Both the position numbers and the translations under genes were made by a program. This document shows, one piece after another, positions 1 through 28,824 of a DNA stretch of 64,000 nt. The notes beneath the pieces are model-generated. The model was not told the origin of the DNA, did not search any database, and saw nothing but the letters and a program-made list of their open reading frames with translations. Source of the DNA: Phycisphaerales bacterium (GTDB taxonomy: Bacteria; Planctomycetota; Phycisphaerae; Phycisphaerales; UBA1924); NCBI GenBank assembly GCA_028284805.1, contig JANQQZ010000132.1, forward strand, positions 1 to 64,000. The letters run 5' to 3'. Numbering within the stretch: the stretch's first letter is position 1; the number at the start of each line of letters is the position of its first letter.

Positions 1-1070
1 TCACCGGGGCTCGCACCGGATGACGCACCGCCCAGGCAGTCCATCACAATGGCGTCCATCCCGCCGGGCGGCACCGCGCTGGGCGACGACCTTGCCACAC
101 GACTCAGGTCCCAACCAGCACTCCGGGCATGATCCCAGGCGATCTGACCGACAACCAGCGTCACACCGCTCGGCTGTGTGATGCGATCGACCACGTCCTG
201 CATCGCGGCATGCGCGGCCTGGCGCGAAAACGGAGCCACTCCGCGAGGACTCTCGAGCACACGCGAAACCAGAGCGAGTCTCTTTCGGAGCTCCGCGAGT
301 TCATCATCAACGCCTGCGAATCCGCCGCCGCGCTGGTGAGACAGGTGCTGATCACAGCTGCGGAGGATTGCCGCGGCGACACCGATGTTGTCCGCGGTCT
401 TCTGACCGGGGTGGACCAATTGCTCGGCAACAGGCAGGTCGATCGTCGTGAACCTAGCCCCGGCCTCGAACAGACGAAGCCAGAGATCGTGATCCATCGC
501 GAGGTGGTTGCCCTCGTCGAGCCCCCCGACACGCTCGAACGCGGACCTGCGGATCAGGGCCTCGGGCTGCACGATGCACCGCCCAGCGAACCAGCGGCTC
601 AGCGGACGCAGGAGCGGCTCTGCGGTCTCGAGCCTCGGCGGCACGGGTGCGAACACAACCCGCCCCGATCGATCGACGAACCGGCAACGCCCCACGACGA
701 CGTCCACGTCGCTGTGCTCGCCAACCGCGAACGCACGGACCAAGGCCGCGGCGCGAGGGTCGTACACGTCGTCAGCGTTGAGCCATCCGATCCAGTCACC
801 CCGAGAGACCGCGACAGCGCGGTTGATCCCGTGGGACTGCCCGCGATCGGGGCCCGCGAGCACGCACGAGACGGGGCTTCCGGCGTCATTCTCGGCGCGG
901 CGGGCGAGGGCGAACGTCTCGTCGTCCGAGCCGCCATCAGCGATGACGTGCTCGATAGCTCCTGGCACCGCGTCCGCGAGCCGGCGGACGCTGCGCAGGC
1001 ACGAGGCGAAGTGCGCGCCCCCGTTGAGGACCGGTGTGACGACGCTGAGGATCGGTCGATCTGGAGTCAC
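1..1070 (-). CDS. Glycosyltransferase family 2 protein, partial (3' end beyond window)
   Basis: Translation from a GTG at 1070 stays open to the left edge (about 356 codons), so the C-terminus is missing. The N-terminus reads ILSVVTPVLNGGAHFASCL, followed by HVIADGGSDDET and WIGWLNADDVYD. This is the GT-A fold of family 2, with the nucleotide-sugar and metal-binding Asp residues in place. A later WxxDxDLW-like block (AMDHDLWLRLFEAG) matches the acceptor part of this family. A GTG seven codons upstream (1091) is an alternative start. The roughly 100 residues after the GT2 fold (including LVVGQIAWDH) are not recognised and may begin a second domain. It diverges from the GT4 gene at 1246. A role in assembling the surface glycan of this locus is inferred from context; donor and acceptor cannot be read. 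Confidence 0.85.
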   Translation of the reverse strand, partial: MTPDRPILSVVTPVLNGGAHFASCLRSVRRLADAVPGAIEHVIADGGSDDETFALARRAENDAGSPVSCVLAGPDRGQSHGINRAVAVSRGDWIGWLNADDVYDPRAAALVRAFAVGEHSDVDVVVGRCRFVDRSGRVVFAPVPPRLETAEPLLRPLSRWFAGRCIVQPEALIRRSAFERVGGLDEGNHLAMDHDLWLRLFEAGARFTTIDLPVAEQLVHPGQKTADNIGVAAAILRSCDQHLSHQRGGGFAGVDDELAELRKRLALVSRVLESPRGVAPFSRQAAHAAMQDVVDRITQPSGVTLVVGQIAWDHARSAGWDLSRVARSSPSAVPPGGMDAIVMDCLGGASSGASPG

Positions 1071-1103
1071 GCGCGAGGATATCAGCGTCACGGGCGGGTG
1101 TGG

Positions 1104-1132
1104 TTGTCCGATTCGCCACCCGGTCGTATCCT
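1104..1132 (+). promoter_or_regulatory. Putative sigma-70 promoter for the GT4 gene
   Basis: TTGTCC, a 17-base spacer and TATCCT lie on the plus strand in the divergent gap. This leaves a leader of roughly 105 bases before the ATG at 1246. A small perfect hairpin (CCGGGG, loop AAGC, CCCCGG) sits at 1150-1165 inside that leader. The call rests on consensus match and spacing only. Confidence 0.4.
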
Positions 1133-1245
1133 GCGGCTGTGCCAGCACCCCGGGGAAGCCCCCGGATGTGCCGTTCCCTGCTGACAGAGGTCGTTGGTGT
1201 GAATGAAGCCGAGCGGGAGCCGATGCTGAGCGAGGCGATCCGACC

Positions 1246-2619
1246 ATGGCTGTGAGCATTGCCGAGCCCAAGGTGGGCGTACCGATGCCCGAGTCCAGCA
1301 CGGCGGACGCCCACGAGTACCCGCGCGTGCTCGTGATCGCGACCGTCAGCTTCAACATGGAAGCCGGCGGCGGCGTGACCATGTCGAACCTCTTCCGAGG
1401 CTGGCCGAAGGACCGAATCGCGCAGATCTACTCCTACGGCGTCAAGAACAAGGACAAGTCGGTCTGCCGACGCTTCTACCACGTCCAGGCGATCGATCGG
1501 CAGTTCGAGTTCGCAGAGGGCAGGCCCCTCTTCGGCTCTGGCCCCGCCTCCAGAGCACTCCGGAGAGCAAAGGCGTACCGGGCCTTCAAAGTCGCAGAAC
1601 AGTTCCAGGAGGCGATCGCATTCGCGCGACAGTTCCGCCCCGATGTGGCGTACCTCAGGCCCATGGACAAGCCCAGTTCGTACTGGTGGTTCTGCCGGGA
1701 TCTCTGCCGACTGCTCGGCATCCCCTACGTCACGCACATCATGGACGATTGGCCCGCGCGGTACGCGGCGGACACGCGGTCGGGCACCGCGCCCGATGTC
1801 CCGGCGGGCCTACGGGGGGTACTGAAGTCGGCCAGGCTCCGACGCTCTCTGGGCAGCATGCTCAACGAGGCCGCCGCGAACATCGCCATCAGCCCCGAGA
1901 TGGCCGCCGCGTTCGCGGAACGCTACGCGCGTCCCTTCGAGGCGTTCCACAACACGATCGACGTCGCCCGGTGGGAGTCACTCTCCGGGGAACGTCCGGC
2001 GGGCATCGCAGGGCGTGATCGCCCGTTCCTCATCCGGTACATCGGCGCGGTCGTCCCTGACAAGGAGCTCCAGTCCTTCAAGGAGATCGCCCTTGCTGCC
2101 AAGATCCTCGCCGACGAGGGACGGAGCATCCGATTCGAGCTCCACTGCGGCCCGGCGTGGAACGAGTCCGTCGACCGGTACCTCGCCGGAGTACCGGTCG
2201 TGCGCCGCGGCGCGTTCCTGCCCCACACCGAACTCCCCCGGGCGCTCAGCGAGGCCGATCTGCTCGTGCTGCCCATGAACTTTGACGCGCGTTCGATCCG
2301 CTACGTCGGCTACTCGATGCAGACCAAAGGGCCCGAGTACATGGCCTCAGGCACGCCGATCCTGGTCTACGGCCCGCCCTCGAATCCGAACGTCCGCTAC
2401 GCCCGGGATGCGGGCTGGGCCGAGGTCATCGATCACCACGATCCGACGGGTGCCTCGATCGCATCGCGGATCAGGACCCTGATGGACGACCCGGATTCTG
2501 CGCGAAGCCTCGCTGACCAGGCACGCGTCGTCGCCCGCAAGAACCACGACGCCGCCGTGGTGCGTACCAGATTCCGCCGCGTGCTCCAGGAAGCAGCCGG
2601 CGGTCAGCCGGTGCCCTGA
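1246..2619 (+). CDS. Glycosyltransferase family 4-like protein
   Basis: This is a 457-residue protein. Its N-terminal Rossmann-like half opens with YPRVLVIATVSFN and a glycine-rich AGGGVTMSNLF. Its C-terminal half carries KGPEYMASGTPILVYGP (about residues 365-381), the usual GT4/GT-B nucleotide-sugar-binding block around a conserved Glu. The length is normal for GT4. No signal peptide or membrane helix is evident, so it probably acts at the cytoplasmic face. The ATG at 1246 follows a GAGG-containing stretch. Its end overlaps by 16 bases the end of the convergent GT2-DUF115 gene. A role in glycan chain assembly is inferred from the neighbouring ABC exporter; sugar specificity is unknown. Confidence 0.85.
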   Translation: MAVSIAEPKVGVPMPESSTADAHEYPRVLVIATVSFNMEAGGGVTMSNLFRGWPKDRIAQIYSYGVKNKDKSVCRRFYHVQAIDRQFEFAEGRPLFGSGPASRALRRAKAYRAFKVAEQFQEAIAFARQFRPDVAYLRPMDKPSSYWWFCRDLCRLLGIPYVTHIMDDWPARYAADTRSGTAPDVPAGLRGVLKSARLRRSLGSMLNEAAANIAISPEMAAAFAERYARPFEAFHNTIDVARWESLSGERPAGIAGRDRPFLIRYIGAVVPDKELQSFKEIALAAKILADEGRSIRFELHCGPAWNESVDRYLAGVPVVRRGAFLPHTELPRALSEADLLVLPMNFDARSIRYVGYSMQTKGPEYMASGTPILVYGPPSNPNVRYARDAGWAEVIDHHDPTGASIASRIRTLMDDPDSARSLADQARVVARKNHDAAVVRTRFRRVLQEAAGGQPVP

Positions 2620-4379
2620 GCCACGCCGACGAAGTCCGCAAGATCGACCCGGTCGAACAGCTCGAGATGGCCTCCCACCGTCGCGTTTGCCACGACACGC
2701 CCGTCCGCTTCGAACGCGTCCTTCGCGAGCCGGTACATGGCTTCCATGTTGTCGACATCCGCGGCGTGCCACTTCTTGCCCTTGAAGTACGTGGGATCGA
2801 AGTGGTTCTCATCGGCCTCGCGCTGATCGACGACGTCTCCCTCCGAGAACTTCGCGCTCTGGCGATAGCTGTGATCGAAACCGACGAGCGCGACGCGGCT
2901 GTACCCCAGCCCGTACGCAAGCTGCATGTGAAAGAAACTGACGGTGTGGCGCCACGAGATGTTCTCGTGGATATCCGTGCTGAACTCCGGGTACCCGACC
3001 GAGTTCACGAACAGCGTGTCCTCGTCTGCCGCGATGCAATAGCCGAGCCAGTACGGGAAGACCTTCGTGATGCCGCGGAGCAGGTTGAAGGAGGCCGCAC
3101 CCTGCTCCGCGACCAGGTTGTTGACCACGCAGAGATAGGTTGCAACGTCGAGCAGCTCGGGCTTGAGGTGGGCGTAGTTGCTCACGAACACATCCGTCTC
3201 GCGCAGCAAGCCGAGATCGGTTTGGTTCAAGCTGGGACCATTGCCGACGATCACTGCGGTATCACTCTTGCGGCATGAGGTCAGCTTCGTCAGTTGCTCG
3301 CGGGAGCGAGCGAGCTGCTCGGCGTGCCAGTCGGCGCGGAACCCCCAACGCTGCTGACCGACCGTGTAGCACACCAGCCCGGCGCCGGAGGGTGTCTCCT
3401 CGTCGACTAACTCGCAGATCTGCTCAAGGCTCAGCCCGCCCCGCTTCATGGCGGAAACCGTGTGCCGAACGCTCTGGGAATCACCCACCAGGGACGCCCG
3501 CGCTCGATGACCGCTGTTGTGCGCCGCGAGGATCCTCGTGGTCTCCCGCTGGACGGCTTCAGCCTCAACCTCGGCGTTGCCAGAGTGCTTGAGGATCCCA
3601 TCGTGCCCGGCAACCTCGAACTCAGCCCAGCGCCGGGCCCATCGCTCGTCGAGGTACCCGTAGTGCCCCGCCGCGACGCCCGCGATCTCGGCGTAGCTCT
3701 CGCCCCGCTTCCCGAGCGTCTTGTTGTCTTCGTAGTACCGAGCGCGGGCGAGCACGCGGTCCAGGAACACCCACCTCATCCCGGCGTGCACCGATCGGAT
3801 CCAGAAGTCGTAGTCCATCGCGAAGTGCAGCCCGGTGTCAGGCAAGCCGATCCGATCGACGACCGATCGGCGGATGAACGTCGCGGGTTGGAGGATGCCG
3901 ACCTCGTGCGCGAGGCGCGCGCGAAGCGACGACGGATCGCTGTTGATGTATGCGTCCCGTGTCTTTGCGCCGTTGGCATCGACGTAGATGCCCCGCCCGT
4001 AGACGATGTCCGGTGCATCCGGCTCGTTGAACCGAGCGAGCACCGTTGCGAAGACCTCGGAGTCCGCGTATGCGTCGTCCGAGTTCAGCCAAGCGATCAC
4101 GTCCCCTCGGGCACGGAGCATGCCCCGTCCGACCGCGTCGGCCTGCCCGTCGTCGGGCTCGTTGACCAGCGTGACCCCCTCGGCCTCCGAGGCGATCGCA
4201 ACGCTCCCGTCGGTGGAGCCGGGATCGAACACCAGGTGCTCCATCGGGCGGTGTGACTGCGAGCGGGCCGACGCGAGGCACTCGGGCAGGAACTCCGCCT
4301 GCTGGTAGCTGGGCGTAACGACGCTGACCGTCCACACACGTGACGCCTTGCTGCGCGATGGGAAGAGCCTGCCGAGCAT
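2604..4379 (-). CDS. Fusion of GT2 glycosyltransferase and DUF115/sialyltransferase-like domain
   Basis: The 591-residue protein has two catalytic modules. Residues about 15-240 are GT2: SVVTPSYQQAEFLPECL, FDPGSTDGS, WLNSDDAY, and the acceptor block FAMDYDFWIRSVHAGM. Residues about 370-590 begin AVIVGNGPSLNQTDL and later show LGYSRVALVGFDHSY. The GNGPSL motif followed by a strand ending in G(I/F)D is shared by DUF115 (MAF-type) proteins and GT42 sialyltransferases. Known members of those groups transfer nonulosonic acids, so transfer of a CMP-activated sugar is a reasonable inference. The start ATG at 4379 has AGGAGG about 8 bases upstream. It is the last gene of a leftward run from wzm, and the next gene upstream (4401-5225) is a free-standing copy of its second domain. 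Confidence 0.85.
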   Translation of the reverse strand: MLGRLFPSRSKASRVWTVSVVTPSYQQAEFLPECLASARSQSHRPMEHLVFDPGSTDGSVAIASEAEGVTLVNEPDDGQADAVGRGMLRARGDVIAWLNSDDAYADSEVFATVLARFNEPDAPDIVYGRGIYVDANGAKTRDAYINSDPSSLRARLAHEVGILQPATFIRRSVVDRIGLPDTGLHFAMDYDFWIRSVHAGMRWVFLDRVLARARYYEDNKTLGKRGESYAEIAGVAAGHYGYLDERWARRWAEFEVAGHDGILKHSGNAEVEAEAVQRETTRILAAHNSGHRARASLVGDSQSVRHTVSAMKRGGLSLEQICELVDEETPSGAGLVCYTVGQQRWGFRADWHAEQLARSREQLTKLTSCRKSDTAVIVGNGPSLNQTDLGLLRETDVFVSNYAHLKPELLDVATYLCVVNNLVAEQGAASFNLLRGITKVFPYWLGYCIAADEDTLFVNSVGYPEFSTDIHENISWRHTVSFFHMQLAYGLGYSRVALVGFDHSYRQSAKFSEGDVVDQREADENHFDPTYFKGKKWHAADVDNMEAMYRLAKDAFEADGRVVANATVGGHLELFDRVDLADFVGVAQGTG

Positions 4380-4400: not shown

Positions 4401-5225
4401 TCAGAAGAGCTCGTCATACCTCACACGCCTGAACACCTCGAGCCGCCCGCCGATCGTCGCGTTGCAGATCCGTCGGCCCTCTTGCTCGAACGCCTGCCTC
4501 GCCAGACGATACGCCGTCTCGGACTGCTCCAGATCGGGCAGTTGCCACCGCGTACCGGGCCCGAAGTACTCGGGCGAGAAATGGTTCCGATCGGGTGCAT
4601 CGGACCGCACGAGCGCGTTCGGTGGGCCGGTCTCCACGAAACTGTGATCAACCCCGAGCAGGATCACCTCACGGAAACCCAGATGGAAGGCAACCTGGAG
4701 CGCGACATACGTGACGGTCCCGCCCTGCCACATGGCATCGGTCAGATCGAAGCTGAACCGGGGCTCGTGCCTCGTGCGGAGCCAGACCGCCGGCGTCGCG
4801 GCTCGAAGCCGCCTCCGGCACTCCCAAGGCAGGAACTTCAGCGTCGGGACCGACGTGATCTCATCGTGAAACTGCTCGATCACGTGCGGGTTCACGCAGC
4901 AGTAGAGCCACCGGCGCCAGTGCGCTGAGGCCGGGTGCAGATAGATCCGGTTGAGCCCGATGACCCACTCGTCTCGGAGGCGAGAGAGATCCGTCTCCGC
5001 CAGGCTCGGTCCATTGCCCAGGATGAAACACCGCTCGCCCGCGAGCCGTCCACGCATCGCGGCGAGACGGGCGATGTTTGCCCGCCCGATCAACGAGGTG
5101 TACCACTGCCTCGCCCCGGAATCCGAGGGAATCCGCGCCAGCCGTTCCGCGGAACGCCGGGCCAGGTGTGCCCAACTCGATCGCAGCTCGTCCGGAACGA
5201 GTGTCTCGGCACTCTGGTCGTTCAT
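4401..5225 (-). CDS. DUF115/sialyltransferase-like protein
   Basis: This is a protein of about 274 residues. After a helical N-terminus comes CFILGNGPSLAETDLSRL (about residues 60-77), then YVALQVAFHLGFREVILLGV and DHSFVETG. It ends with an Asn-rich segment (CNATIGGRLEVFRRV) also found, as VANATVGGHLELFDRV, at the end of the neighbouring fusion. It is therefore a paralogue of the fusion's C-terminal domain. The motif set resembles MAF/DUF115 and GT42-type enzymes, which use CMP-nonulosonates in characterised cases; activity here is inferred. ATG at 5225 overlaps the upstream stop as TGATG; a GTG directly before it (5228) is equally possible. Translational coupling to the methyltransferase gene is likely. 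Confidence 0.75.
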   Translation of the reverse strand: MNDQSAETLVPDELRSSWAHLARRSAERLARIPSDSGARQWYTSLIGRANIARLAAMRGRLAGERCFILGNGPSLAETDLSRLRDEWVIGLNRIYLHPASAHWRRWLYCCVNPHVIEQFHDEITSVPTLKFLPWECRRRLRAATPAVWLRTRHEPRFSFDLTDAMWQGGTVTYVALQVAFHLGFREVILLGVDHSFVETGPPNALVRSDAPDRNHFSPEYFGPGTRWQLPDLEQSETAYRLARQAFEQEGRRICNATIGGRLEVFRRVRYDELF

Positions 5226-7084
5226 CACGCGCGGCCGGTGTGAGCCGCCTTCTTCGGCGCGGCCTTTCTGCTCCGCCCCTTCTTCCGAACCACCGGCACA
5301 GGCGGGTCGCGATCCGTTGGGATCGATGACTCAGCGGCCTTCGGCTTGCTCTCGACCTGCTTCGAGCCTGCGGATTCATCACCCCCGGTGGTCTTCTTGC
5401 CGGCCTTCTTCTTCGCGGCCTTCGCAGGAGTCTTCTTCGAGGTCTTGGAGGCTGCCTTCTTGGCCGATGCGACGCGGAGACGCTTGAACACTGCCGTCTT
5501 TCCGATCACCGCCACCAGCTTGAAGCGGGGGTCGTCACGCACGGTCTCATCAACAAAGACGGTGACTGCGGGCCAGTCCTCGGAGCCGTAGTCATCGATC
5601 ACTAGCATCCCGCCCGGCTTCAGCATCGAGGCGTACCCGTCGAAGTCGGCCCGGATGCCCTCCGCGCTGTGGTCCCCGTCGATCACGATGAGGTGGAAGG
5701 GACCGGCAGACTCTGCGGCAGCATTGATCTTGTCATCCGTCGAGAACCCTTCCAGGATCTCCACATCGTCGCTCGGGATCCCGCACCGCATCATGTTGCG
5801 CTCGACAGATGCACGTGTTACGGGCAGACCCGTGAGCGGGTCGAGGTGGTCCTTGCCGTAATAGCCCTCGAAGGGGTCGAGGAGAACGAGCCGGACACGG
5901 TCGAACCGCGGCGCGAGCGTGTGGTGCAGATAGGCCGCGCCGACGCCGAAGAGCACTCCGATCTCGAGGATGTTGAGTTCCTTCGAGTTGACCAAACACC
6001 CGGCCAGCATCCGTCCGACCGCGTCGTCGACCGAGCCCGCAAGGCGCCCTTCGCAGAGCCCCTCGAGGACCTGAAGCTTCCGTTCGAGGTACTTGACCTC
6101 GCCTGGCATCAACTCGAACCCCATGGCCTTCGCCGACTGCACCGCTTCGCCCGAGATCAGGCGGGGGAACCGGACGTAACCATCGCCCCGCTGCCTCGCA
6201 TTGAGGTGCACAGCTTCGTCGAGACGCTTGCTGACGTCCTCGATCGCGCTCGTAGCCGCTTCCTTCGCTGCGGTCACCGAGCTCATCCGCTTGCGCTCGT
6301 GCGTGTCGTCGATTTTGGAGACCCGACCGTTGACGAGCCGGAGCTTGTCATCGATCTGCGCCTGCGCCTCCTCCAAGAGCTTCTGGACCTCGGCGATCTG
6401 CACACGCCCGGACTCGGCCTGCCCCTCGATGTTCTCGACATCGGACCGGAGGGCGTCCAGGTGCTCGGAAAGCGAAGCCAATTCGTCGAGATCGGCGCGC
6501 AAGGCCCCAAGACGCTCGGACAACTCACGCTGAGATTCGCTCAGACGCTTGTCCGCCGAGGCCGTTGCCTTGGTCTGGGCTTCGACGGCCTCCTCCTGAC
6601 GACGCGAAAGATCGCCGAGACGGGAATCGAGCCCGGCGCCGAGCGCCTCCATGGCTTCGATCCTGGGGGTGTCCTCCCGCAGTTTCTCGACCTCGCCCAG
6701 GATCTCCAGCCGATCGGTCTCGGCCTGGTCGAGCTTCGACTTCGTCGCGAGGAACGACTCACGGGTGTCGGCGTCGTACCGCTCCAGCCATCGGGCGGTG
6801 TCGTCGTACCGTTTGTTGAGTGCCTCCAGCCGCCCGGTGGTCCCGCGGATATGCACGTGAGAGACGATCAGCAGCTTGGTCAGGAAGGCAACCGCGAGCG
6901 CGATGAACGCGACTCCGAAGACGAGCAACGCTCCCGCCCCGCTCACCCATGTCCCGAGAGCCACGAACCCGACCGCGAGCACGAGGAGCGAGAGCAGCAC
7001 CACCATCGCCGTCTTTCGGCGTTTGGGCTCATACAGCAGCGAATCAAGCACGGCATCCCCCGCACGACTGACTATCCCGAACAA
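5225..7084 (-). CDS. Membrane-anchored coiled-coil protein with methyltransferase domain and Lys-rich tail
   Basis: The 619-residue protein has four parts. Residues about 25-75 form two hydrophobic helices (MVVLLSLLVLAVGFVALG and a second). Residues about 85-280 are charged heptad-rich coiled coil. Residues about 340-535 are a class I SAM methyltransferase: NILEIGVLFGVG is motif I, and HLIVIDGDHSAEG with KPGGMLVIDDY are the later strands, close to the Methyltransf_24 group. From about 538 the tail is Lys/Ala-rich and histone-H1-like (KKAASKTSKKTPAKAAKKK). It lies between wzt and the DUF115 gene. Size-gauging coiled coil plus methyltransferase beside an ABC exporter recalls WbdD, which caps O-antigen; that role is inferred. 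The start is a TTG at 7084 without a clear Shine-Dalgarno site; a downstream start is possible. Confidence 0.8.
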   Translation of the reverse strand: MFGIVSRAGDAVLDSLLYEPKRRKTAMVVLLSLLVLAVGFVALGTWVSGAGALLVFGVAFIALAVAFLTKLLIVSHVHIRGTTGRLEALNKRYDDTARWLERYDADTRESFLATKSKLDQAETDRLEILGEVEKLREDTPRIEAMEALGAGLDSRLGDLSRRQEEAVEAQTKATASADKRLSESQRELSERLGALRADLDELASLSEHLDALRSDVENIEGQAESGRVQIAEVQKLLEEAQAQIDDKLRLVNGRVSKIDDTHERKRMSSVTAAKEAATSAIEDVSKRLDEAVHLNARQRGDGYVRFPRLISGEAVQSAKAMGFELMPGEVKYLERKLQVLEGLCEGRLAGSVDDAVGRMLAGCLVNSKELNILEIGVLFGVGAAYLHHTLAPRFDRVRLVLLDPFEGYYGKDHLDPLTGLPVTRASVERNMMRCGIPSDDVEILEGFSTDDKINAAAESAGPFHLIVIDGDHSAEGIRADFDGYASMLKPGGMLVIDDYGSEDWPAVTVFVDETVRDDPRFKLVAVIGKTAVFKRLRVASAKKAASKTSKKTPAKAAKKKAGKKTTGGDESAGSKQVESKPKAAESSIPTDRDPPVPVVRKKGRSRKAAPKKAAHTGRA

Positions 7085-7099
7085 CCCACACCGGCCTGC

Positions 7100-7105
7100 A
7101 GTATA
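7100..7105 (-). promoter_or_regulatory. Possible -10 element upstream of the coiled-coil methyltransferase gene
   Basis: TATACT on the minus strand lies in the 45-base gap between wzt and the methyltransferase gene, 15 bases before the TTG. No good -35 hexamer is seen at 16-18 bases. If used, the transcript would have almost no leader, which would favour a start codon further downstream. Confidence 0.2.
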
Positions 7106-7129
7106 GAGCCGCCCCCAGGGCGATCCGCA

Positions 7130-8401
7130 TCAGGCCCACGGGGAGCGTCCCTCGTAGACCCAGGGGTACTCGCGACCGATCAGGCCGGGACGCGTCTGTG
7201 GGTACCACAGACGGCGCCGGCTGCTGCGGTCAACGATCCGGAAGCTGACTGCGCCGGGCTCGCGATCGAAGATCCGCTCGAACGGGATGCCCGCGCTCAC
7301 GGTCAAGCGGTACGGCCCAGCCTCGAGTAGCCCGCCGTCGACCTCGAACTCAGCCGAGTACGTCCCTCGACGACGGGGACCCAGGCAAGCCGGGTCGTAG
7401 TCCGCGTCCCCCGAACAAAGCACTCCCAAGCCATCGGGCGTCTCGAGCCGGCAGAACACGTTCATGTTCTCGACGTCCTCGTTGATGTCGTAGGAGACCC
7501 GCACACGGAACGACTCGGCCATCTCGATCTCTTCCGCGACCTCGCCCGTGCGGTTCAGGATCGCGGCAGCCCGGATCCGCAGCGGACGTTCCGGATCCGG
7601 GTCGAACGCCACGTAGGCATTGGTCGGGGACTCGGGCTGAACCATCTCGCGGTAGTGCTCGACGACACGCGCGGTAGCACCGATCGAGATCAGGTGACCC
7701 CGATCGAGTTCCAGGGCACGGTCGCACAGGCGTTCGACGATCTCGCGCTGGTGGCTCACGAAGAGCACGGTCCGCCCGCCCTGGATCAGTTCTTCCATGC
7801 GCGATGCCGAGCGCCGCCGGAACTCGGCATCGCCCACGCTCAGCACCTCGTCGATCAGCAGGATCTCGGGCTCCAGGGTTGTCATGACCGCGAACGCGAG
7901 GCGGATCCGCATGCCGCTGGAGTACCGCTTCACGGGCACGTCGATAAAGGGACGGATGCCGGAAAACTCGATGATCTCCTCGACCTTCCTGCGGATCTCC
8001 TTCGCGGGGATACCCAGGATCGCGCCGCTGAGCGAGATGTTCTCGCGCCCGGTCAGTTCCTGCTTGAACCCCACTCCGACCTCAAGCATCGACCCGACGC
8101 GCCCATGCAGCACGACCCTCCCCGAGGTGGGGAGCGTGAGCCGCGAGATGATCTTCAGCAGCGTGCTCTTCCCGGCCCCGTTGCGCCCGATGATCCCCAG
8201 CGCCTCGCCCGGCATGACATCGAAGCTCACATCGCGGAGCGCCCAGTGCACGTCGGCCTCATCTGGCTCGACGCGCCCTCCCCCGAGCAAGCCCCGGGCG
8301 GCCTCCAGCGCCGTGCCCAGCATCAGACGGTTGCCCTGCGTGCGTTGACGCAGCATGTACCGCTTCGACAGCTCCTGGCAGGCGATCATCGGCTCTGTCA
8401 T
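7130..8401 (-). CDS. wzt: ABC transporter ATP-binding protein with Wzt-type carbohydrate-binding domain
   Basis: This is a 423-residue nucleotide-binding subunit of a polysaccharide/teichoic-acid exporter. It has Walker A GRNGAGKST (about residues 69-77), the signature YSSGMRIRLAFA near 158, Walker B ILLIDEVLSVGD, and an H-loop in VSHQREIV. From about residue 250 comes a separate beta-rich domain (RIRAAAILNRTGEVAEE, EAGPYRLTVSAGIPF) of the Wzt C-terminal type. In known systems that domain recognises the capped end of the glycan. I chose ATG 8401, ten bases after the wzm stop. The longer open frame would run about 50 bases into wzm. It is transcribed with wzm and presumably energises export across the inner membrane. 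Confidence 0.92.
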   Translation of the reverse strand: MTEPMIACQELSKRYMLRQRTQGNRLMLGTALEAARGLLGGGRVEPDEADVHWALRDVSFDVMPGEALGIIGRNGAGKSTLLKIISRLTLPTSGRVVLHGRVGSMLEVGVGFKQELTGRENISLSGAILGIPAKEIRRKVEEIIEFSGIRPFIDVPVKRYSSGMRIRLAFAVMTTLEPEILLIDEVLSVGDAEFRRRSASRMEELIQGGRTVLFVSHQREIVERLCDRALELDRGHLISIGATARVVEHYREMVQPESPTNAYVAFDPDPERPLRIRAAAILNRTGEVAEEIEMAESFRVRVSYDINEDVENMNVFCRLETPDGLGVLCSGDADYDPACLGPRRRGTYSAEFEVDGGLLEAGPYRLTVSAGIPFERIFDREPGAVSFRIVDRSSRRRLWYPQTRPGLIGREYPWVYEGRSPWA

Positions 8402-8411
8402 CGCGCCCGCC

Positions 8412-9302
8412 TCACAGCACGTCCGTGATCGTCTGTTCGGTCCGCATGAACGAGACGAACCCAACCACGAGTATCACCACCGTGCTGAACAAGCCGGCAG
8501 CCACCATACTCGCGGACAGCGGGAAGACGCCTCCGAGCACCGCGTACCGGACTCCCTCACACACAAGCACCATTGGGTTCAGCGCGTACCACTGCTGAAA
8601 GCGCTCGGGCACGCGCGACACGCTGTACAGCACGGGTGTCGAAAAGAACCACAGGTGCAGCATGATGGGCAGGAAGTGCTGCACGTCCTTGAACTGTGCG
8701 TTGAACGAGGACAGCAGCATGCCCATACCGGTCGCCGCCGACATGCCGATCACCCCGAACACGGGCAGCCAGAGCAACTCCCAGCCCGGCACATACCGAT
8801 ACGCGAGCAGGATCCCAACGAGCACGACCATCCCAATCGCTGTATCGAGCAGGGGGCTGATGACGTTCGAGACAGGCAGCAGCAGCCTTGGAAAGTACAC
8901 CTTGGCGAGCAACGAGGAGTCCTTCACGAGCGCCTGCGCCGCCCGCCCCGCGCTCGAGTTGAAATAGTTCCACGCGAGCATCGCAGGGAACAGGAAGACC
9001 ACATAGGGATGATCCGTGCTCTGGCGGTCGAAGAAGACGTCAAACACCAGCCAGTACACGCCCAGCGAGGCCGCGGGGACGATGACCGCCCAGGCCACGC
9101 CCAGCAGGGCCTCGCGGTACCGAACGGAGATGTCTCGCCGCACGAGCATCCAGAGCAGCTCGCGCCGAGCCATGGCCTCGCTCAGCCTAGCTCGCCACCC
9201 GCGCCGGGTGGCATCGACCACGTAGCTGATCCCGGTGTCGTTGCGGTCCTCGCCCGGACTGCTCGGATCGGTCTCGGATGTATTGGCTTCGATGGAGGTC
9301 AA
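8412..9302 (-). CDS. wzm: ABC transporter permease, polysaccharide export (Wzm-type)
   Basis: This is a protein of about 296 residues of the ABC-2 permease family. RRDISVRYREALLGVAWAVI is the amphipathic lead-in typical of Wzm/TagG. About six membrane helices follow (for example AVIVPAASLGVYWLVF, AIGMVVLVGILLAYRY, MLHLWFFSTPVLYSVS). The open frame extends much further upstream, but that part is antisense to the CMP-sugar synthetase gene. A TTG at 9302 with AGAAGGA about ten bases before it gives a normal-length protein. It is the first gene of the leftward glycan-export run. The 75-base gap to the divergent gene at 9378 must hold both promoters. Confidence 0.9.
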   Translation of the reverse strand: MTSIEANTSETDPSSPGEDRNDTGISYVVDATRRGWRARLSEAMARRELLWMLVRRDISVRYREALLGVAWAVIVPAASLGVYWLVFDVFFDRQSTDHPYVVFLFPAMLAWNYFNSSAGRAAQALVKDSSLLAKVYFPRLLLPVSNVISPLLDTAIGMVVLVGILLAYRYVPGWELLWLPVFGVIGMSAATGMGMLLSSFNAQFKDVQHFLPIMLHLWFFSTPVLYSVSRVPERFQQWYALNPMVLVCEGVRYAVLGGVFPLSASMVAAGLFSTVVILVVGFVSFMRTEQTITDVL

Positions 9303-9377: not shown

Positions 9378-10079
9378 ATGACCATCCCCAAGCCGGATCG
9401 CCGAGTGACCGCGATCGTACCGATGCGTCACAGCAGCGAACGCATCCCCTACAAGAACTTCGCGGATTTCAGGGGCAAGCCGCTCTTCTGCCACATCCTC
9501 GACTCGCTCTTGGGTGCCAGCGGAGTGACCACGATCGTCGTGGACACAGACAGCCCCCGCGTGATGGACGAGTGCGACAGAAGGTACCCCGATGTCATCG
9601 TCCTCGAACGCCCGGAGTCGCTCCGTGACGGCGGCATCCCCATGAACGACGTGCTGCTCCACACCGTTTCCCAGCTCGAAGGCGATCACTTCCTGCAGAC
9701 GCACAGCACGAACCCCCTGCTCAGAAGCTCGACGATCGATTCTGCGATCATCGAGTACCTCGATGGGCTCCCGGAGCACGACTCGCTCTTCGGCGTGACG
9801 CGCTGGCAGACCCGGCTCTACGACGACCAGGGGGCCCCCATCAACCACGACCCCGCCTTGCTCGCCAGGACGCAGGACCTGCCCCCGGTCTTCGAGGAAA
9901 ACTCGAACCTGTACCTCTTCAGCCGCTCGACGCTGGAGACCCACCGCAGGCGGATCGGGAGCAGCCCCCGACTCTTCGAGATCGACCGGCTCGAGGCGAC
10001 CGACATCGACGACACGGCGGGCTGGCGCCTGGCCGAAGCCATCGCCCAGGCAAAGCTGGTCGAGGAGCCAGGATCATGA
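9378..10079 (+). CDS. CMP-sugar synthetase (cytidylyltransferase, NeuA/PtmB/KdsB-like)
   Basis: The 233-residue protein starts VTAIVPMRHSSERIPYKNF, the P-x-R-x-x-S-x-R-x-P-x-K-N nucleotide-binding loop of CMP-nonulosonate and CMP-Kdo synthetases. LQTHSTNPLLRS (about residues 110-121) corresponds to the QxTSPLR acceptor motif, and IDRLEATDIDD near the end supplies acidic metal ligands. It would activate an acidic sugar with CTP, giving CMP-sugar and pyrophosphate. ATG 9378 was chosen because the longer frame is antisense to wzm and wzt. The stop overlaps the next gene as ATGA. Donor use by the DUF115 proteins in this locus is inferred. No NeuB-type synthase is present in the window. Confidence 0.88.
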   Translation: MTIPKPDRRVTAIVPMRHSSERIPYKNFADFRGKPLFCHILDSLLGASGVTTIVVDTDSPRVMDECDRRYPDVIVLERPESLRDGGIPMNDVLLHTVSQLEGDHFLQTHSTNPLLRSSTIDSAIIEYLDGLPEHDSLFGVTRWQTRLYDDQGAPINHDPALLARTQDLPPVFEENSNLYLFSRSTLETHRRRIGSSPRLFEIDRLEATDIDDTAGWRLAEAIAQAKLVEEPGS

Positions 10080-11059
10080 TCACATTCCCCGATGGCGCCT
10101 TCGAGGGCATTAGGCTGCTGCTCACAGGCCCGCGCATCCTGCGTGACATCGAACTCGTCCGGCCCGAGCTCCAGCGACTCGGCTTCCAGGTCCGGACTGC
10201 GCAGGTCCGCCAACGCCTCACCGAGAGCGAGCTCATCCCGCTGGTCGACGATATCGACGCGGCCATCTGCGGCGGCGATCAGTGGACACGCAGAGTCTTC
10301 GAGGCCGCTCCGAACCTCAGGGCGCTCTGCAAATGGGGTACGGGTGTCGATCAGATCGACTTCCAAGCTGCAGCGGACCACGGCGTGCTCGTGCGGAACG
10401 TGCCCGACGCCTTCAGCGTGCCAGTGTCCGATTCGGTGCTGTGTTTCATGCTCTGCTTTGCCCGCAAGATTCCCTGGCTGACGCACGAACTGAAGACGGG
10501 CCGATGGACGCCGCTCGATGGCCCGAGCCTTGCCGAGTGCACGCTCGGTGTGATCGGCGTCGGGAACATCGGCTCCGCCGTGCTCCGCAAGGCTTCCGCC
10601 TTCGGCATGAAACTGCTCGCGACCGACCCTCGTGATGACATCCCGCTCCAGCTCATCGACGACACCGGAGTCGACCTCGTGTCCCTCGAAGAGCTGTTGC
10701 AAGCGTCGGATTTCGTGAGCATCAACTGCGACCTGAACGACTCCAGCAAGGGGCTGATGTCCAAGGAGCAGTTCAAGCTGATGAAATCGTCGGGCGTGCT
10801 CATCAACACCGCACGCGGCGGCGTGGTCGATCAACCCGCGCTCATCCGGGCGCTGCAAGCGGGTGAGATCGCCGGCGCGGGCCTCGATGTCTTTGAAACC
10901 GAGCCCGTCCCGTCTGACAGCCCTCTGCTCGGGCTTGAGAACGTCCTGCTCTCACCCCACTTGGCGAACAGCTCCGACCGCGCTGCCCACCGTGTGCACC
11001 GCATCACGATCCGGAACATCGCCGAGCTGCTTCAGCAGGCATCGGAGCAAACGGTATGA
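10076..11059 (+). CDS. D-isomer-specific 2-hydroxyacid dehydrogenase
   Basis: This is a 327-residue NAD-dependent dehydrogenase of the phosphoglycerate/erythronate dehydrogenase type. The nucleotide-binding loop is LGVIGVGNIGSAVL (about residues 160-173). Catalytic Arg lies in NTARGGVVDQPAL, Glu in FETEPVP, and the proton-relay His in LLSPHLANSS. KWGTGVDQIDF is the usual substrate-side loop. It overlaps both neighbours by four bases (ATGA), so it is translationally coupled to the CMP-sugar synthetase and the SDR. It probably oxidises or reduces an intermediate of the activated sugar; the substrate is unknown. Confidence 0.88.
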   Translation: MITFPDGAFEGIRLLLTGPRILRDIELVRPELQRLGFQVRTAQVRQRLTESELIPLVDDIDAAICGGDQWTRRVFEAAPNLRALCKWGTGVDQIDFQAAADHGVLVRNVPDAFSVPVSDSVLCFMLCFARKIPWLTHELKTGRWTPLDGPSLAECTLGVIGVGNIGSAVLRKASAFGMKLLATDPRDDIPLQLIDDTGVDLVSLEELLQASDFVSINCDLNDSSKGLMSKEQFKLMKSSGVLINTARGGVVDQPALIRALQAGEIAGAGLDVFETEPVPSDSPLLGLENVLLSPHLANSSDRAAHRVHRITIRNIAELLQQASEQTV

Positions 11060-11814
11060 ACCAGTCGCACGAACGCCATGTTTTGGTCACGGGCTCCTCG
11101 GGGGGCATCGGCTCGGCGATCTGCCGGGTGTTCCACGAGGCGCGCTGGACCGTCTTCGGCGTCGACCGGCGCCACGAGACCTCGCCCTGGGTCGATGAGT
11201 TCATCGAGGCCGATATCTCCGAGCCTTCCGCACCCAGCGCGATCTTCGACCGCGTCCGTGAGAGGACTGATCGCCTTCACGCCCTGGTAAACAACGCTGC
11301 CCTGCAGATCTGCAAACCGGTTCTGGAGACCACCCCCGAAGAGTGGGACGCGGTGATGGCCTCGAACATCCGCTCGGTGTTTCTCTCGGTCCGCGAGGCG
11401 TTCGAGCTTCTGCGTGAGGCCAAGGGATCGGTGATCAACGTGTCGAGCGTGCACGCGATGGCGACCAGCCGAAGCATCGGCGCATACGCAGCCAGCAAGG
11501 GCGCTCTGCTGGCGTTCACCAGGTCGCTCGCGCTCGAGTTTGGGGAGTACGGCATCCGAGTCAACGCGCTCCTGCCCGGCGCGGTCGACACGCCGATGCT
11601 GCACGCGGGACTGTCCCGGGGGCATGTCGACGCCGATTCGATCGACGGACTGGTGCGGGGTCTGGGGCACAAGCATGTTCTCGGGCGTGTGGGCCAGCCC
11701 GAAGAGATCGGTCGTTCGGTACTGTTTCTCGCGGACCCCTACTCGTCGTCATTCATAACGGGTCAGTCTCTCGTCGTCGACGGCGGCGCACTGGCGCGCC
11801 TCAGCACCGAGTAG
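11056..11814 (+). CDS. SDR family oxidoreductase (PtmA-like)
   Basis: This is a 252-residue classical short-chain dehydrogenase. It has the cofactor motif VTGSSGGIGSA (TGxxxGxG), NNAA at the end of strand 4, catalytic Ser in INVSSVHAM, and YAASK with catalytic Tyr and Lys. NALLPGAVDTPML and ITGQSLVVDGG close the fold. An SDR next to a CMP-sugar synthetase is the arrangement of ptmA/ptmB in legionaminate-type pathways, so an NAD(P)-dependent step in nonulosonate synthesis or modification is plausible. It overlaps the dehydrogenase stop as ATGA. Confidence 0.88.
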   Translation: MNQSHERHVLVTGSSGGIGSAICRVFHEARWTVFGVDRRHETSPWVDEFIEADISEPSAPSAIFDRVRERTDRLHALVNNAALQICKPVLETTPEEWDAVMASNIRSVFLSVREAFELLREAKGSVINVSSVHAMATSRSIGAYAASKGALLAFTRSLALEFGEYGIRVNALLPGAVDTPMLHAGLSRGHVDADSIDGLVRGLGHKHVLGRVGQPEEIGRSVLFLADPYSSSFITGQSLVVDGGALARLSTE

Positions 11815-11897
11815 CCGGGCGCACGATGCCTGAGTTTGATGCAGCGGATCGCGGTTGACCGAGATACTGTTTGCATCCGAGCCCGGAGCATGCCAGC

Positions 11898-12713
11898 GTG
11901 ACGACACGCCCCCCCGCCATCGCAGTACTCATGCCGGTCTACAACGCCGAGGCGTTCATCGACCAGGCAGTGCGCAGCATCCGGGGGCAGAGCTTCACCG
12001 ACTTTGAACTGATCATCGTCGACGACGGCTCGAGCGACGACTCGCTCGCCATCCTGCGCGAGCATGCCCAAGAAGACCGTCGGATAACGCTGATCAGCCG
12101 CCCCAACACCGGGCTCGTCGGTGCGCTGAACGAGATGGCGGACGTCGCGCGTTCACCGCTTCTCGCGCGGATGGACGCCGACGACATCGCGCTGCCCGAC
12201 CGCTTCCAACGCCAGCTGGACTGGTTCAGCCGCCATCCGAGGACCGTTTGTCTGGGCGGGCGCGTCGAGCTGATCGCCGAATCGGGACAGCCGCTCGAGT
12301 CCCCTGATCCGGTGACGGGCAATGACCGGATCCAGCAGGAGGCGCTCGCTGGGCGGACTCCCCTCTCGCACCCCGCTGTGATGATGCGCGCCGAAGCCTT
12401 CCAGCAGGTCGGGGGCTACCGCGACGAGGCCTACCCCGCTGAGGATCTCGATCTCTTCCTCCGACTGGGGGAACTGGGCGAGCTCCACAACCTGCCCGAG
12501 ACCGTGTTGCGTTACCGCATGCACGGCGGCTCGGTCAGCGTGCAGCACAGCAAACGCCAGATCCAGAAGATGCGTCAGGCGTGCGAGGCCGCCTGGTCGC
12601 GCCGGGGCATCACGGGCCGCTTCGGTGTGAGCATCGAGGCCAAGCCTCAGGGCGACGAGAACTGCCCGATCCTGGCCAACCCGACAGCCTCGGCGCTCGC
12701 CGGGCGGGCCTGA
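11898..12713 (+). CDS. Glycosyltransferase family 2 protein
   Basis: This is a 271-residue GT2 enzyme: IAVLMPVYNAEAFIDQAV, then IIVDDGSSDDSLAIL and ARMDADDIALPDRF (the DxD metal site). The acceptor block is PAEDLDLFLRLGELGEL, followed by YRMHGGSVS. I chose GTG 11898, just before the conserved strand; a TTG nine codons upstream (11871) is possible. It is last in the rightward CMP-sugar run, with an 83-base gap after the SDR that may hold its own promoter. No membrane helix is seen. Acceptor and donor are unknown. Confidence 0.87.
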   Translation: MTTRPPAIAVLMPVYNAEAFIDQAVRSIRGQSFTDFELIIVDDGSSDDSLAILREHAQEDRRITLISRPNTGLVGALNEMADVARSPLLARMDADDIALPDRFQRQLDWFSRHPRTVCLGGRVELIAESGQPLESPDPVTGNDRIQQEALAGRTPLSHPAVMMRAEAFQQVGGYRDEAYPAEDLDLFLRLGELGELHNLPETVLRYRMHGGSVSVQHSKRQIQKMRQACEAAWSRRGITGRFGVSIEAKPQGDENCPILANPTASALAGRA

Positions 12714-12855: not shown

Positions 12856-15800
12856 CTACTCGGGCTGGTACACCGGGTTCCGGACCTCTTCGCCGTAGGG
12901 CACCCGAAGGTACGCCAGCACGCGAGGAGGCTGGCCCCGCGAAACCACGTTCGAACGGTCCACGATCATCAGGTACCGACCCCGGAAGCTCGGGCGCATC
13001 GGTTCGCTGTCGTCCAGGTCCTCGACGTCGTCGTCCTCGAACCCGTGCACGACGATCCAGGCCGCGTAGAAGTCGCTGCTCGTGCTCACGGCGTTCGCCA
13101 GCATGTTGATCTGAACCAGCTGCTCGTCGTAGTCGTCGGGGATCTGATCCGCCACGGGGAGTTGGAACTGGGCACCCGCGTCATCCGAGAACCGGATCGG
13201 ATCACCCAGCAGCGACGGATCCAGGCTGACGATCCGCAGTTCGTTGCCGATGATGAAGTCCCGGACCGCATCGGCATCGGTAAAATCTGGCTCGCCACCC
13301 GCCGGGTCGCCGGTCGTCGGGTCGACGAAGATCTGACTGACCGTCCGCCGATCGCGGGCGGTCCAATCCATGCCGAACTGGAAGCGAGCCGCAGCGACAC
13401 CACCTCCGGGCTCCCCGCTCGACCGGACGGCCATCAGCTCGCCGATCGACCCAAAGCCCGGCGCGGTGCGCAGAGCGGGAATCGCGGGCCCGTTGCTCAG
13501 ATCGGGCACGCCGTCGCCGCTGGTGTCCACGGCGTCGCGCAGGATCTGGACGCCCCGCGTCAAGTCAGGGTTGCCCGCCTGATCCAGGGCGGCGAACGGC
13601 CCCATGTTCAAGGGCTCGTCAATATCCGAGCCCGCAAGGCCCGCCCCACGCAGCAGTCTCTTGGCCCCAGAGGCCGGCTCGCGGTAGCTCAGGATCGATG
13701 ACGCAACATCGAGCCTGCCGTAGAGCTCTGAGATCGAACCGCTCGGCAGTCCCGGGTCCGCTGAGCCCGGCAACATCACGTTGGGATAGGCGACCTGCAG
13801 CCCGTTGCCCGTCGCCTCGTTCCCGATCCGCGCCGACCACGCAGGCACGGCGTTCGTCGGCACACCATCGTTGGTGTCGGGCACGTCGCGATACACACCG
13901 GGCAGCGTCCGCAGCACGCTGGGCGCGGCCGTGTTGATGTTCACCGTGCCCGCGATGGGCGACGCGATGCCGCCGTAGGCCCGGTCGGGCAGATCCCCGC
14001 CCGCCTGGGCGATGTCGAACAGGCTGAGCGCCGCCGGGATGCCCAGCCCGCGGATGCGGTCGACAACCGGGTTGAACGGGTCGTTCGCGAACGAGCCGTC
14101 GCCGTCGTCGTCCTCGGCGTCGACGTACGGCACAAAGTCGTCCAGACGCAGGTGCCCGCGGTCGAGCACGCCCGCCAGCTGCTCGAAGACATCGGTGTTC
14201 GCGCCCGCCGGGCTCTCGAGCTCGTCCAGAGTTCCCTCGGCGACTCCGAGCGCTTCGCTCAGCGTCGTCCACTGATCGATGTACGCCTCTGCGCGAGCGA
14301 CCGGGTCGGCGATGGGTGGGTAGCCGTCGGGGCCGACAGCGGTTGTCCGCAAGGGCATGCGGTACGGACCGACAGCGATGACGTTCAGCAGATCGCCGAC
14401 ACGCAGCTGCGGGAAGCCATCGATGCTCGTGCGGAACTCACGCGAGTTGCGGCTGATCTGCAGCAGGCTTGACCCGCCATAAGTGTCAGTGCGAGAGGTA
14501 TTGGCGGTCACATCCAGATAGGCGTCGTTGGGTCCGCCCGTGAGGTACCGTGTGGCGTCGAGCACCGAGTTGAGGAACGTGGCCTGCCGCTGTGTCTTGA
14601 ATCGCCCGTTTCCTCCGTTGATCCCACCGAGTTGCTCAACAATGAAGTCATTCAGCGTCGACGCACCCTCATAGTTTCGGCTGATCGTGGTTCCGAGCGA
14701 GAAATCCGTGAAAGACGCGTCAAACCAAAGCTCTGTTGGCGTGAATGGGCCGGCATCGGCTTGCTCATTGTCCTCAACCGTCTCGATTGCATCAGGAGCA
14801 TTGGTGGCAAGCGACGCCGCCGGTAGCGCGCCGCTGGGGAGGCCGAAAACGGCGTTGTCGCCGGCTCCCGGGTTGATGCCGGACGGGACGGTGGGTGGAT
14901 CGCTTGGAATCATGCCATCCGGGCCCGGCAAGTCGTTCGCACGCCGGCCCCCGGTCGTGCCGTCAATGGCAGTCATGCTGGCATCGACCTCGAGCGATGC
15001 GTCGAAGCGCCGGAGCCTTGCCCAGAGGCCGATCGATCTCTGGGCGCCGGCGTTCATGCCCGGCCGACCCATACTGCTTTCGAACTGCTCTCCAAACGCA
15101 ACGGGCCCAACGCCATCGATGCTGAAGCCATCACCGGTAATCGCGTTCTGGACCGCATCGGGAGGTGTGTTCACCAAACCCGCATCAATGATTTCGGCTG
15201 GCTGGAGCCTGAGTCTCTGATCGAGGGCGGGGGTTTCACCTGCTTGGGTTGCTCCGGGATCGCTGAGGCGATCGGCCAACAGATCGTCACGCCGCCACTC
15301 GATGCTACTGCCAGTGGTACCCTGCTTATCGCCGAGATCCCACCACAGCAGTACGTTGGTGTTCTGCGGATTGTACTCGCCGTAGTCTGCGACATCGCCA
15401 GCCAGCAGATCATCGATAGCTGTCGGCGTCAGAGCGTTGCCGGCAAGGTCGAAACGCTCGAGCGGGAGCCGTAGGGAAGCATCATCAGGAACAATGGTCT
15501 CGATGATGTTTTGGGCCATCACAGAGGGCACCACCCCGCCGAAGGTCGGCGCGGTAAAGCCGCCGTTCCGGCCATCGGCTTCCGTAGCAACCAAGTTGAT
15601 GCGCTCCATGATGGGCAAATATGCCGCGGCACCGGTCGTCGCCAAGTTCACACCCGGATTCGTGGCAAACAAGAGCACTGTCTCACCCGGAGTCAGAATG
15701 ATCGAATCGGACGCCGAGCCGAACGTACGAGGCCTGTAGAGCGATTCGCCGAACTCAATGTAATAGTCATTCAGCGATACAGCTACGTCGAACGGGTTGA

Positions 15801-18846: not shown

Positions 18847-18914
18847 AAGTCGGCTCCGAACTGGCTCCGTCGTGGAGCGCTGTCTGCGCGGCGTCCTCGA
18901 CGCCACGCCGCGGG

Positions 18915-21053: not shown

Positions 21054-21054
21054 G

Positions 21055-25764: not shown

Positions 25765-25775
25765 CGGGTCCCCCG

Positions 25776-27530: not shown

Positions 27531-27677
27531 GCCTGTCTCCTCGGTGAGGCCCGAAGACCTCCACCATGTGTGTATCTTCGCACCAGACGTGGAAAGGTCT
27601 GCCGAAAAGACTGCGTTTCCAGGGGCTCCAGACGTAGCGACATCCGGATATCTACTCTTCGAACTCGCTAATTGGAC

Positions 27678-28799: not shown

Positions 28800-28824
28800 G
28801 GGTCAGTCTCCTGCCGTCGGGGGA

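What the first reader, a model, noticed from the sequence alone, without database searches (positions are those of the whole stretch)
5225..9302. Possible WbdD-like capping and length-control module beside a Wzm-Wzt exporter
The 619-residue protein combines two membrane helices, a long coiled coil and a SAM methyltransferase, and lies next to an ABC exporter whose Wzt has a C-terminal carbohydrate-binding domain. In E. coli O8/O9a, WbdD caps the chain and its coiled coil sets length, and Wzt's C-terminal domain recognises the cap. Here the order of parts differs (N-terminal anchor, no kinase domain seen, Lys-rich tail), so this would be an independent solution to the same problem. Architecture and position are seen; the role is inferred.
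Basis: partly seen in the sequence, partly recalled or inferred. Interest (0 to 1): 0.75.

Follow-up and report, generated by a model that had tools for sequence, protein, structure and literature searches.

The report
Reversed coiled-coil glycan-capping methyltransferase beside Wzm-Wzt
A planctomycete sugar exporter sits next to a membrane-anchored rod carrying a sugar methyltransferase at its far end, which looks like a mirror-image version of the E. coli WbdD enzyme that caps growing surface sugar chains and so sets their length.

Summary
Window 5225-7084(-) encodes 619 aa: a two-helix membrane hairpin, a coiled coil (about 111-292) and a metal-type sugar O-methyltransferase (MT; Pfam Methyltransf_24), 45 nt after a wzt that has a Wzt_C domain, inside a glycan cluster. 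The architecture occurs in 7 of 163 genomes of the same family. In six it lies directly after wzt. In the seventh it is fused behind GT2/MptE-like glycosyltransferase modules in one 2748-aa protein, which links it to the polymerase.

Across 95 wzt loci, almost all from that family, the gene just after wzt carries a coiled coil in 44, against 17 of 925 control positions. In 32 of these the order is the WbdD order (MT, then coil). The window's group and one other locus have the MT after the coil. The window protein thus fills the slot of a chain terminator with reversed polarity. Its MT has the MycE-type residues (D469, H472, D498), and its best fold match is MeT1, which O-methylates the end of a mycobacterial polysaccharide.

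Best reading: a membrane-anchored coil holds a capping MT away from the polymerase. The cap is likely; length control is inferred. It is a new variant of a known kind, not a WbdD family member.

The parts
5225..7084 (-). TM-hairpin / coiled-coil / Methyltransf_24 protein, 619 aa: proposed glycan chain terminator
   Evidence: orthologs
6863..7027 (-). membrane anchor: two hydrophobic helices (residues about 20-74), positive charges on both cytoplasmic flanks
6197..6754 (-). coiled-coil region (residues 111-296)
6032..6196 (-). conserved linker between coil and MT (RxRGDGY ... YLERK ... CEGRLA)
   Evidence: alignments
5480..6031 (-). Methyltransf_24 domain (residues 352-535); LEIGVLFG SAM motif, D469 and H472 (IDGDH), D497-D498 (IDDY)
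   Evidence: MycE residues from PMC9275233
5228..5467 (-). Lys/Ala-rich disordered tail (residues 540-619)
7130..8401 (-). wzt, ABC ATPase with C-terminal Wzt_C domain (Wzt_C at 7217-7582)
8412..9302 (-). wzm, ABC2_membrane permease (start uncertain)
4401..5228 (-). MptE-like (DUF115/WaaZ-related) protein, probable glycosyltransferase
   Evidence: synteny
2604..4379 (-). GT2 fused to MptE-like domain, probable part of the polymerase
   Evidence: syntenic in L028, L029 and L100
1246..2619 (+). GT4-type glycosyltransferase
3..1382 (-). GT2 glycosyltransferase running off the contig end
9378..10079 (+). CMP-sugar synthetase (CTP_transf_3)
10076..11059 (+). D-2-hydroxyacid dehydrogenase
11056..11814 (+). 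short-chain dehydrogenase
11871..12713 (+). GT2 glycosyltransferase

Best explanation
The 619-residue protein is the chain terminator of an ABC-transporter-dependent surface glycan. A two-helix hairpin fixes its N-terminus in the inner membrane with both ends in the cytoplasm. A coiled coil of about 180-220 residues, probably oligomeric, rises from the membrane and carries a metal-dependent sugar O-methyltransferase at its far end. The polymerase (GT2/MptE-like modules encoded just downstream) works at the membrane on a lipid-linked chain. The methyltransferase can reach the non-reducing end only when the chain is long enough, methylates it, and growth stops. Wzm-Wzt then exports the chain, and in most of these genomes Wzt_C may recognise the methylated end. 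Shown: anatomy, active-site residues, fold, genomic slot, and fusion to glycosyltransferase modules in one genome. Inferred: that the acceptor is the chain end, that methylation stops growth, that coil length sets chain length, and that Wzt_C reads the cap.
For: (1) Slot: the gene just after wzt has a coiled coil in 44 of 95 wzt loci, against 17 of 925 control positions; 32 of the 44 are MT-then-coil proteins of the known terminator type. (2) All six stand-alone members lie directly after wzt. (3) In G403 the same TM-coil-MT unit forms the C-terminus of a 2748-aa protein whose N-terminal part holds two GT2 domains, MptE-like motifs and an FkbM MT: polymerase, anchor, coil, terminator, the mirror image of K. 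pneumoniae O7 and O12 (PMC11231755). (4) MT: its family neighbours in Pfam and its fold matches include many sugar O-methyltransferases; best match MeT1, which caps the 1-OH end of methylmannose polysaccharide, and D469, H472 and D498 match MycE D275, H278 and D304, invariant in all seven members. (5) Topology: positive-inside charges put the MT in the cytoplasm with SAM. (6) The coil is sequence-divergent (19% identity, window against the other five) between a conserved anchor and a 55%-identical MT, as expected for a spacer.
Against: No glycan structure or assay exists. Coil length is 172-186 in six members from only two genera and 221 in G403; the tail is about as constant apart from one long outlier, so length constancy is weak evidence. 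G403's Wzt ends at 287 aa with no Wzt_C, so cap recognition by Wzt is not a fixed part of the system. No domain for recruiting a separate polymerase was identified. The coil is modelled with low confidence from only four sequences. The MT could methylate an internal sugar.
Confidence: 0.62

Rival explanations
1. Membrane-tethered decorating enzyme: the methyltransferase O-methylates internal residues of each repeat or of a primer, and the coil only oligomerises it or scaffolds the glycosyltransferases; chain length is set elsewhere.
For: The closest MT relatives are coil-free: a stand-alone MT in G065 and one inside an MptE/GT2 fusion in G312, together with the window group in a supported clade (97/96). 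A second MT (FkbM) also travels with these clusters, so methylation need not mean a cap.
Against: A decorating enzyme needs no 180-residue rod. The gene sits in the slot where this family keeps MT-coil terminators. A separate FkbM MT is available for internal methylation.
Confidence: 0.22
2. The cluster glycosylates surface proteins (for example the giant LEPR-XLL-type proteins encoded next to it), and the MT finishes a short protein-linked oligosaccharide rather than a polymer.
For: MptE-like domains are shared with Maf protein glycosyltransferases (own knowledge). A giant surface protein follows the cluster in L028, L029 and L030.
Against: Wzm-Wzt with Wzt_C exports lipid-linked polymers in characterised systems. 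The genome also has LpxC and O-antigen-ligase-type (Wzy_C) proteins. No giant LEPR-XLL-type protein was seen beside the cluster within the window.
Confidence: 0.1
3. On origin rather than role: a rearranged descendant of the canonical MT24-coil terminators of the same family (domain permutation), not an independent origin.
For: 11 canonical terminators in the same slot use the same Pfam MT domain. The AU test does not reject one clade (p 0.073 and 0.141).
Against: In both trees the two groups are separate, and the window group joins coil-free MTs with 97/96 support.
Confidence: 0.2

Closest known systems
WbdD of E. coli O8 (MT only) and O9a/K. pneumoniae O3 (MT plus kinase)
   Same: Catalytic MT at one end of an extended coiled coil, membrane association at the other, encoded in an ABC-transporter (wzm-wzt) glycan cluster; no kinase, as in O8 (PMC3482155).
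   Different: Reversed order: N-terminal two-TM anchor, coil, C-terminal MT, in place of N-terminal MT, coil, C-terminal amphipathic helix. MT of another family (Methyltransf_24). No sequence match to WbdD in the PDB search; polymerase recruitment untested.
K. pneumoniae O12 WbbB and O7 ORF6 (terminator-coil-polymerase fusions)
   Same: The G403 homolog joins glycosyltransferase modules, coil and terminator in one chain.
   Different: Mirror image: glycosyltransferases N-terminal, then TM hairpin, coil and MT; O7 and O12 have the terminator N-terminal and glycosyltransferases C-terminal (PMC11231755).
MT-then-coil genes after wzt in the same planctomycete family (L102, L114, L180 and others)
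   Same: Same genomic slot; 11 of them use the same Pfam MT domain.
   Different: MT first and coil last, no TM hairpin, and a separate MT clade.
L121 (G025) helix-coil-Methyltransf_11
   Same: MT C-terminal to the coil, directly after wzt.
   Different: Possible amphipathic N-terminal helix (moment 0.59; 6% of shuffles reach it) instead of TM helices, and another MT family.
MeT1, methylmannose polysaccharide 1-O-methyltransferase (PDB 6g7d)
   Same: Best fold match and best single-sequence match in the PDB; caps the end of a polysaccharide.
   Different: Soluble, no coil, acts on the 1-OH (reducing) end; 21% identity.

Membership tests
WbdD | SAM methyltransferase catalytic domain | tested here: met
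   PF13578, fold match and catalytic residues, but no WbdD among the PDB sequence matches
WbdD | N-terminal catalytic domain followed by C-terminal coil and amphipathic membrane helix | tested here: not met
   order is TM hairpin, coil, MT in all seven members
WbdD | kinase domain (O9a type only; O8 type lacks it) | tested here: not met
   no Pfam or NCBIfam kinase hit
WbdD | recruits the polymerase near the membrane | not testable with these tools
   only a fusion with glycosyltransferase modules in G403
coiled-coil terminators of ABC-transporter glycans (functional class) | extended coiled coil | tested here: met
coiled-coil terminators of ABC-transporter glycans (functional class) | terminating enzyme at the end of the coil distal from the membrane and polymerase | tested here: met
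   MT at the end opposite the TM anchor; in G403 opposite the glycosyltransferases
coiled-coil terminators of ABC-transporter glycans (functional class) | encoded with wzm-wzt | tested here: met
   6 of 7 directly after wzt; 7th genome has the same wzm-wzt cluster on another contig
coiled-coil terminators of ABC-transporter glycans (functional class) | adds a non-reducing-end cap and sets chain length | not testable with these tools
   needs glycan chemistry or genetics
Wzt with cap-binding C-terminal domain | Wzt_C domain (PF14524) | tested here: met
   31.2 bits against a cut-off of 30.4 for the window; up to 58.6 in orthologs; absent in G403
Wzt with cap-binding C-terminal domain | binds the capped chain end | not testable with these tools
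   Wzt model too poor for a pocket (mean pLDDT 48)
metal-dependent sugar O-methyltransferases (MycE/MycF type) | Asp/His/Asp active site (MycE D275, H278, D304) | tested here: met
   D469, H472, D498 align and are invariant in the family

The most novel reading that the evidence does not exclude
An independently evolved, polarity-reversed and membrane-anchored class of coiled-coil glycan terminators, which in one genome is fused into a single 2748-aa polymerase-anchor-ruler-terminator whose Wzt has lost the cap-binding domain, so that length control is uncoupled from export recognition.
Probability: 0.4. Interest if true: 0.7.

Novelty: new variant of a known kind. Interest (0 to 1): 0.58.

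Why it matters
The ruler model says that what matters is the distance between polymerase and terminator, not which end of the coil is the N-terminus. The characterised terminators described in the papers read here put the enzyme N-terminal and the membrane end C-terminal. A natural mirror image in the same genomic slot tests that model. It anchors the coil by transmembrane helices, so coil-length changes should read out simply. The survey also shows that coiled-coil methyltransferase terminators are common beside wzt in a planctomycete family, a group absent from those papers.

Tried and rejected
Constant coil length as proof of a ruler: 172-186 residues in six members, but the disordered tail is about as constant apart from one outlier, so it was not used as strong evidence. 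A first neighbour count with greedy gene picking gave 33 of 91 and lost real genes to opposite-strand frames; it was replaced. The first MT tree left out G403 and G065 by de-duplication and was rebuilt. The Wzt model was too poor for a fold search. Searches of the class and phylum found no full architecture outside the window's family, so wider spread was dropped; both drew about 400 genomes from larger groups. The weak coil-domain hits to SMC/Rad50 models are coil similarity, not homology. The low-scoring MT hits in other relatives are coil-free MTs.

Full report
What is there. The finding's sequence claims hold. On the minus strand the window encodes wzm (8412 to about 9302), wzt (7130-8401), a 619-residue protein (5225-7084), an MptE-like protein (4401-5228) and a GT2-MptE fusion (2604-4379). 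The gaps are 10 nt (wzm-wzt), 45 nt (wzt-MT), a 4-nt overlap (MT-MptE) and 21 nt (MptE to the fusion). Divergently come a CMP-sugar synthetase, a D-2-hydroxyacid dehydrogenase, a short-chain dehydrogenase and a GT2 (9378-12713). The 619-residue protein has two hydrophobic helices with positive charge on both outer flanks, a coiled coil at about 111-292 (160 residues above threshold, against a mean of 38 and a maximum of 117 in shuffles), a conserved linker, a Methyltransf_24 domain and a Lys-rich disordered tail. It gave no coil in the five neighbouring proteins.

The methyltransferase. The best PDB match by sequence and by fold is MeT1 (6g7d), a 1-O-methyltransferase that blocks the end of mycobacterial methylmannose polysaccharide (PMC9883506). 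Other fold matches include sugar O-methyltransferases (MycF, MycE, SpnH) as well as catechol-type and tRNA enzymes. The alignment to MycE places D469, H472 and D498 on MycE D275, H278 and D304 (numbering of the PDB chain corrected for a 20-residue tag, my inference), residues named as the active site in PMC9275233. They are invariant in all members, as is the LEIGVLFG motif.

Distribution. Three full-length orthologs came from Phycisphaera-type MAGs, with the same gene order around the unit (in L030 the MptE and GT2-MptE genes are not directly downstream). Of 163 genomes of the window's family, seven have the architecture: the window's, five of one other genus, and G403. Class and phylum searches (about 400 sampled genomes each) found no full architecture outside the family. 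In six genomes the gene directly follows wzt. In G403 the unit is the C-terminus of a 2748-aa protein with two GT2 domains, sequence motifs resembling MptE-like domains, and an FkbM methyltransferase. The rest of the cluster (GT2, SDR, dehydrogenase, CMP-sugar synthetase, wzm, wzt) sits on another contig, and its Wzt ends at 287 aa without the C-terminal domain. This links the unit to the glycosyltransferases, and it also shows that it persists without Wzt_C.

The slot. To ask whether the position means anything, 95 wzt loci (nearly all from the same family) were examined and the frames just 3' of wzt were scored for coils. A coil of 50 or more residues was present in 44, against 17 of 925 positions after other long frames. 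Related genomes are not independent, so the count shows enrichment, not a precise probability. By Pfam, 32 of the 44 have an MT N-terminal to the coil, 11 of them Methyltransf_24; five are other types; six are the window's type; and one (L121) is helix-coil-Methyltransf_11. Proteins in which glycosyltransferases follow an MT-coil unit (L107, L135) resemble K. pneumoniae O7. So the canonical terminator architecture is the common occupant of this slot, and the window's protein occupies it with reversed polarity.

Origin. In a tree of 57 MT domains the window's group is one clade (95/94) joined with two coil-free MTs (G065, G312; 97/96), and the canonical MT24-coil enzymes form a separate clade (100/99). 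An AU test does not reject a joint clade (p 0.073, 0.141). Independent assembly is favoured, not shown.

How it most likely works. Published terminators hold the capping enzyme at the distal end of a coiled coil so that only chains long enough to reach it are capped (PMC3482155, PMC11231755). Here the anchor is a transmembrane hairpin at the N-terminus and the enzyme is at the C-terminus, so membrane, coil and enzyme keep the same spatial order although the chain direction is reversed. The G403 fusion puts the glycosyltransferase modules on the membrane side of the coil, as the model requires. Capping by O-methylation of a sugar is well supported by the fold and by the slot. That it stops growth, that coil length sets chain length, and that Wzt_C reads the cap are inferences. 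Coil length (172-186, 221 in G403) is not decisive, because the unstructured tail is nearly as constant apart from one outlier.

Verdict. A real, family-restricted, polarity-reversed variant of the coiled-coil terminator class. It probably works like WbdD of E. coli O8 but is not a WbdD family member, since domain order and MT family differ.

Noticed in passing
G403:C22, L198 9590-10453: Wzt cut to 287 aa without Wzt_C, in the otherwise syntenic cluster of the genome whose terminator is fused to the polymerase.
   Followed up: yes
L121 1401-3023: Second reversed case directly after wzt: possible amphipathic helix, long coil, then Methyltransf_11. The contig begins at wzt, so the wider context is unknown.
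   Followed up: partly
L107 9273-13847, L135 7234-11679: MT-coil-WbsX-GT4 fusions, like K. pneumoniae O7 ORF6 in layout.
   Followed up: partly
L184 6464-8200: Polysaccharide pyruvyl transferase-like domain (weak hit) followed by a coil just after wzt: possibly a pyruvyl-capping terminator.
   Followed up: no
L190 2890-6027 and L163 6565-7323: Sulfotransferases directly after wzt, possibly sulfate caps.
   Followed up: no
L028 from 16372, L029 from 16373, L030 from 11526: Large LEPR-XLL-type surface proteins (IEPLEKRVLLSA-like N-terminus) follow the glycan cluster in three genomes.
   Followed up: no
window 12856-30573: Run of pilin-like genes (N-terminal prepilin-type motifs) with type II secretion/type IV pilus ATPases and an inner-membrane platform protein next to the glycan cluster.
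   Followed up: no
L060 9282-16211 (G312): 2308-aa protein with MptE-like motifs, Methyltransf_24, GT2-like and TPR-like parts in another family of the class.
   Followed up: partly
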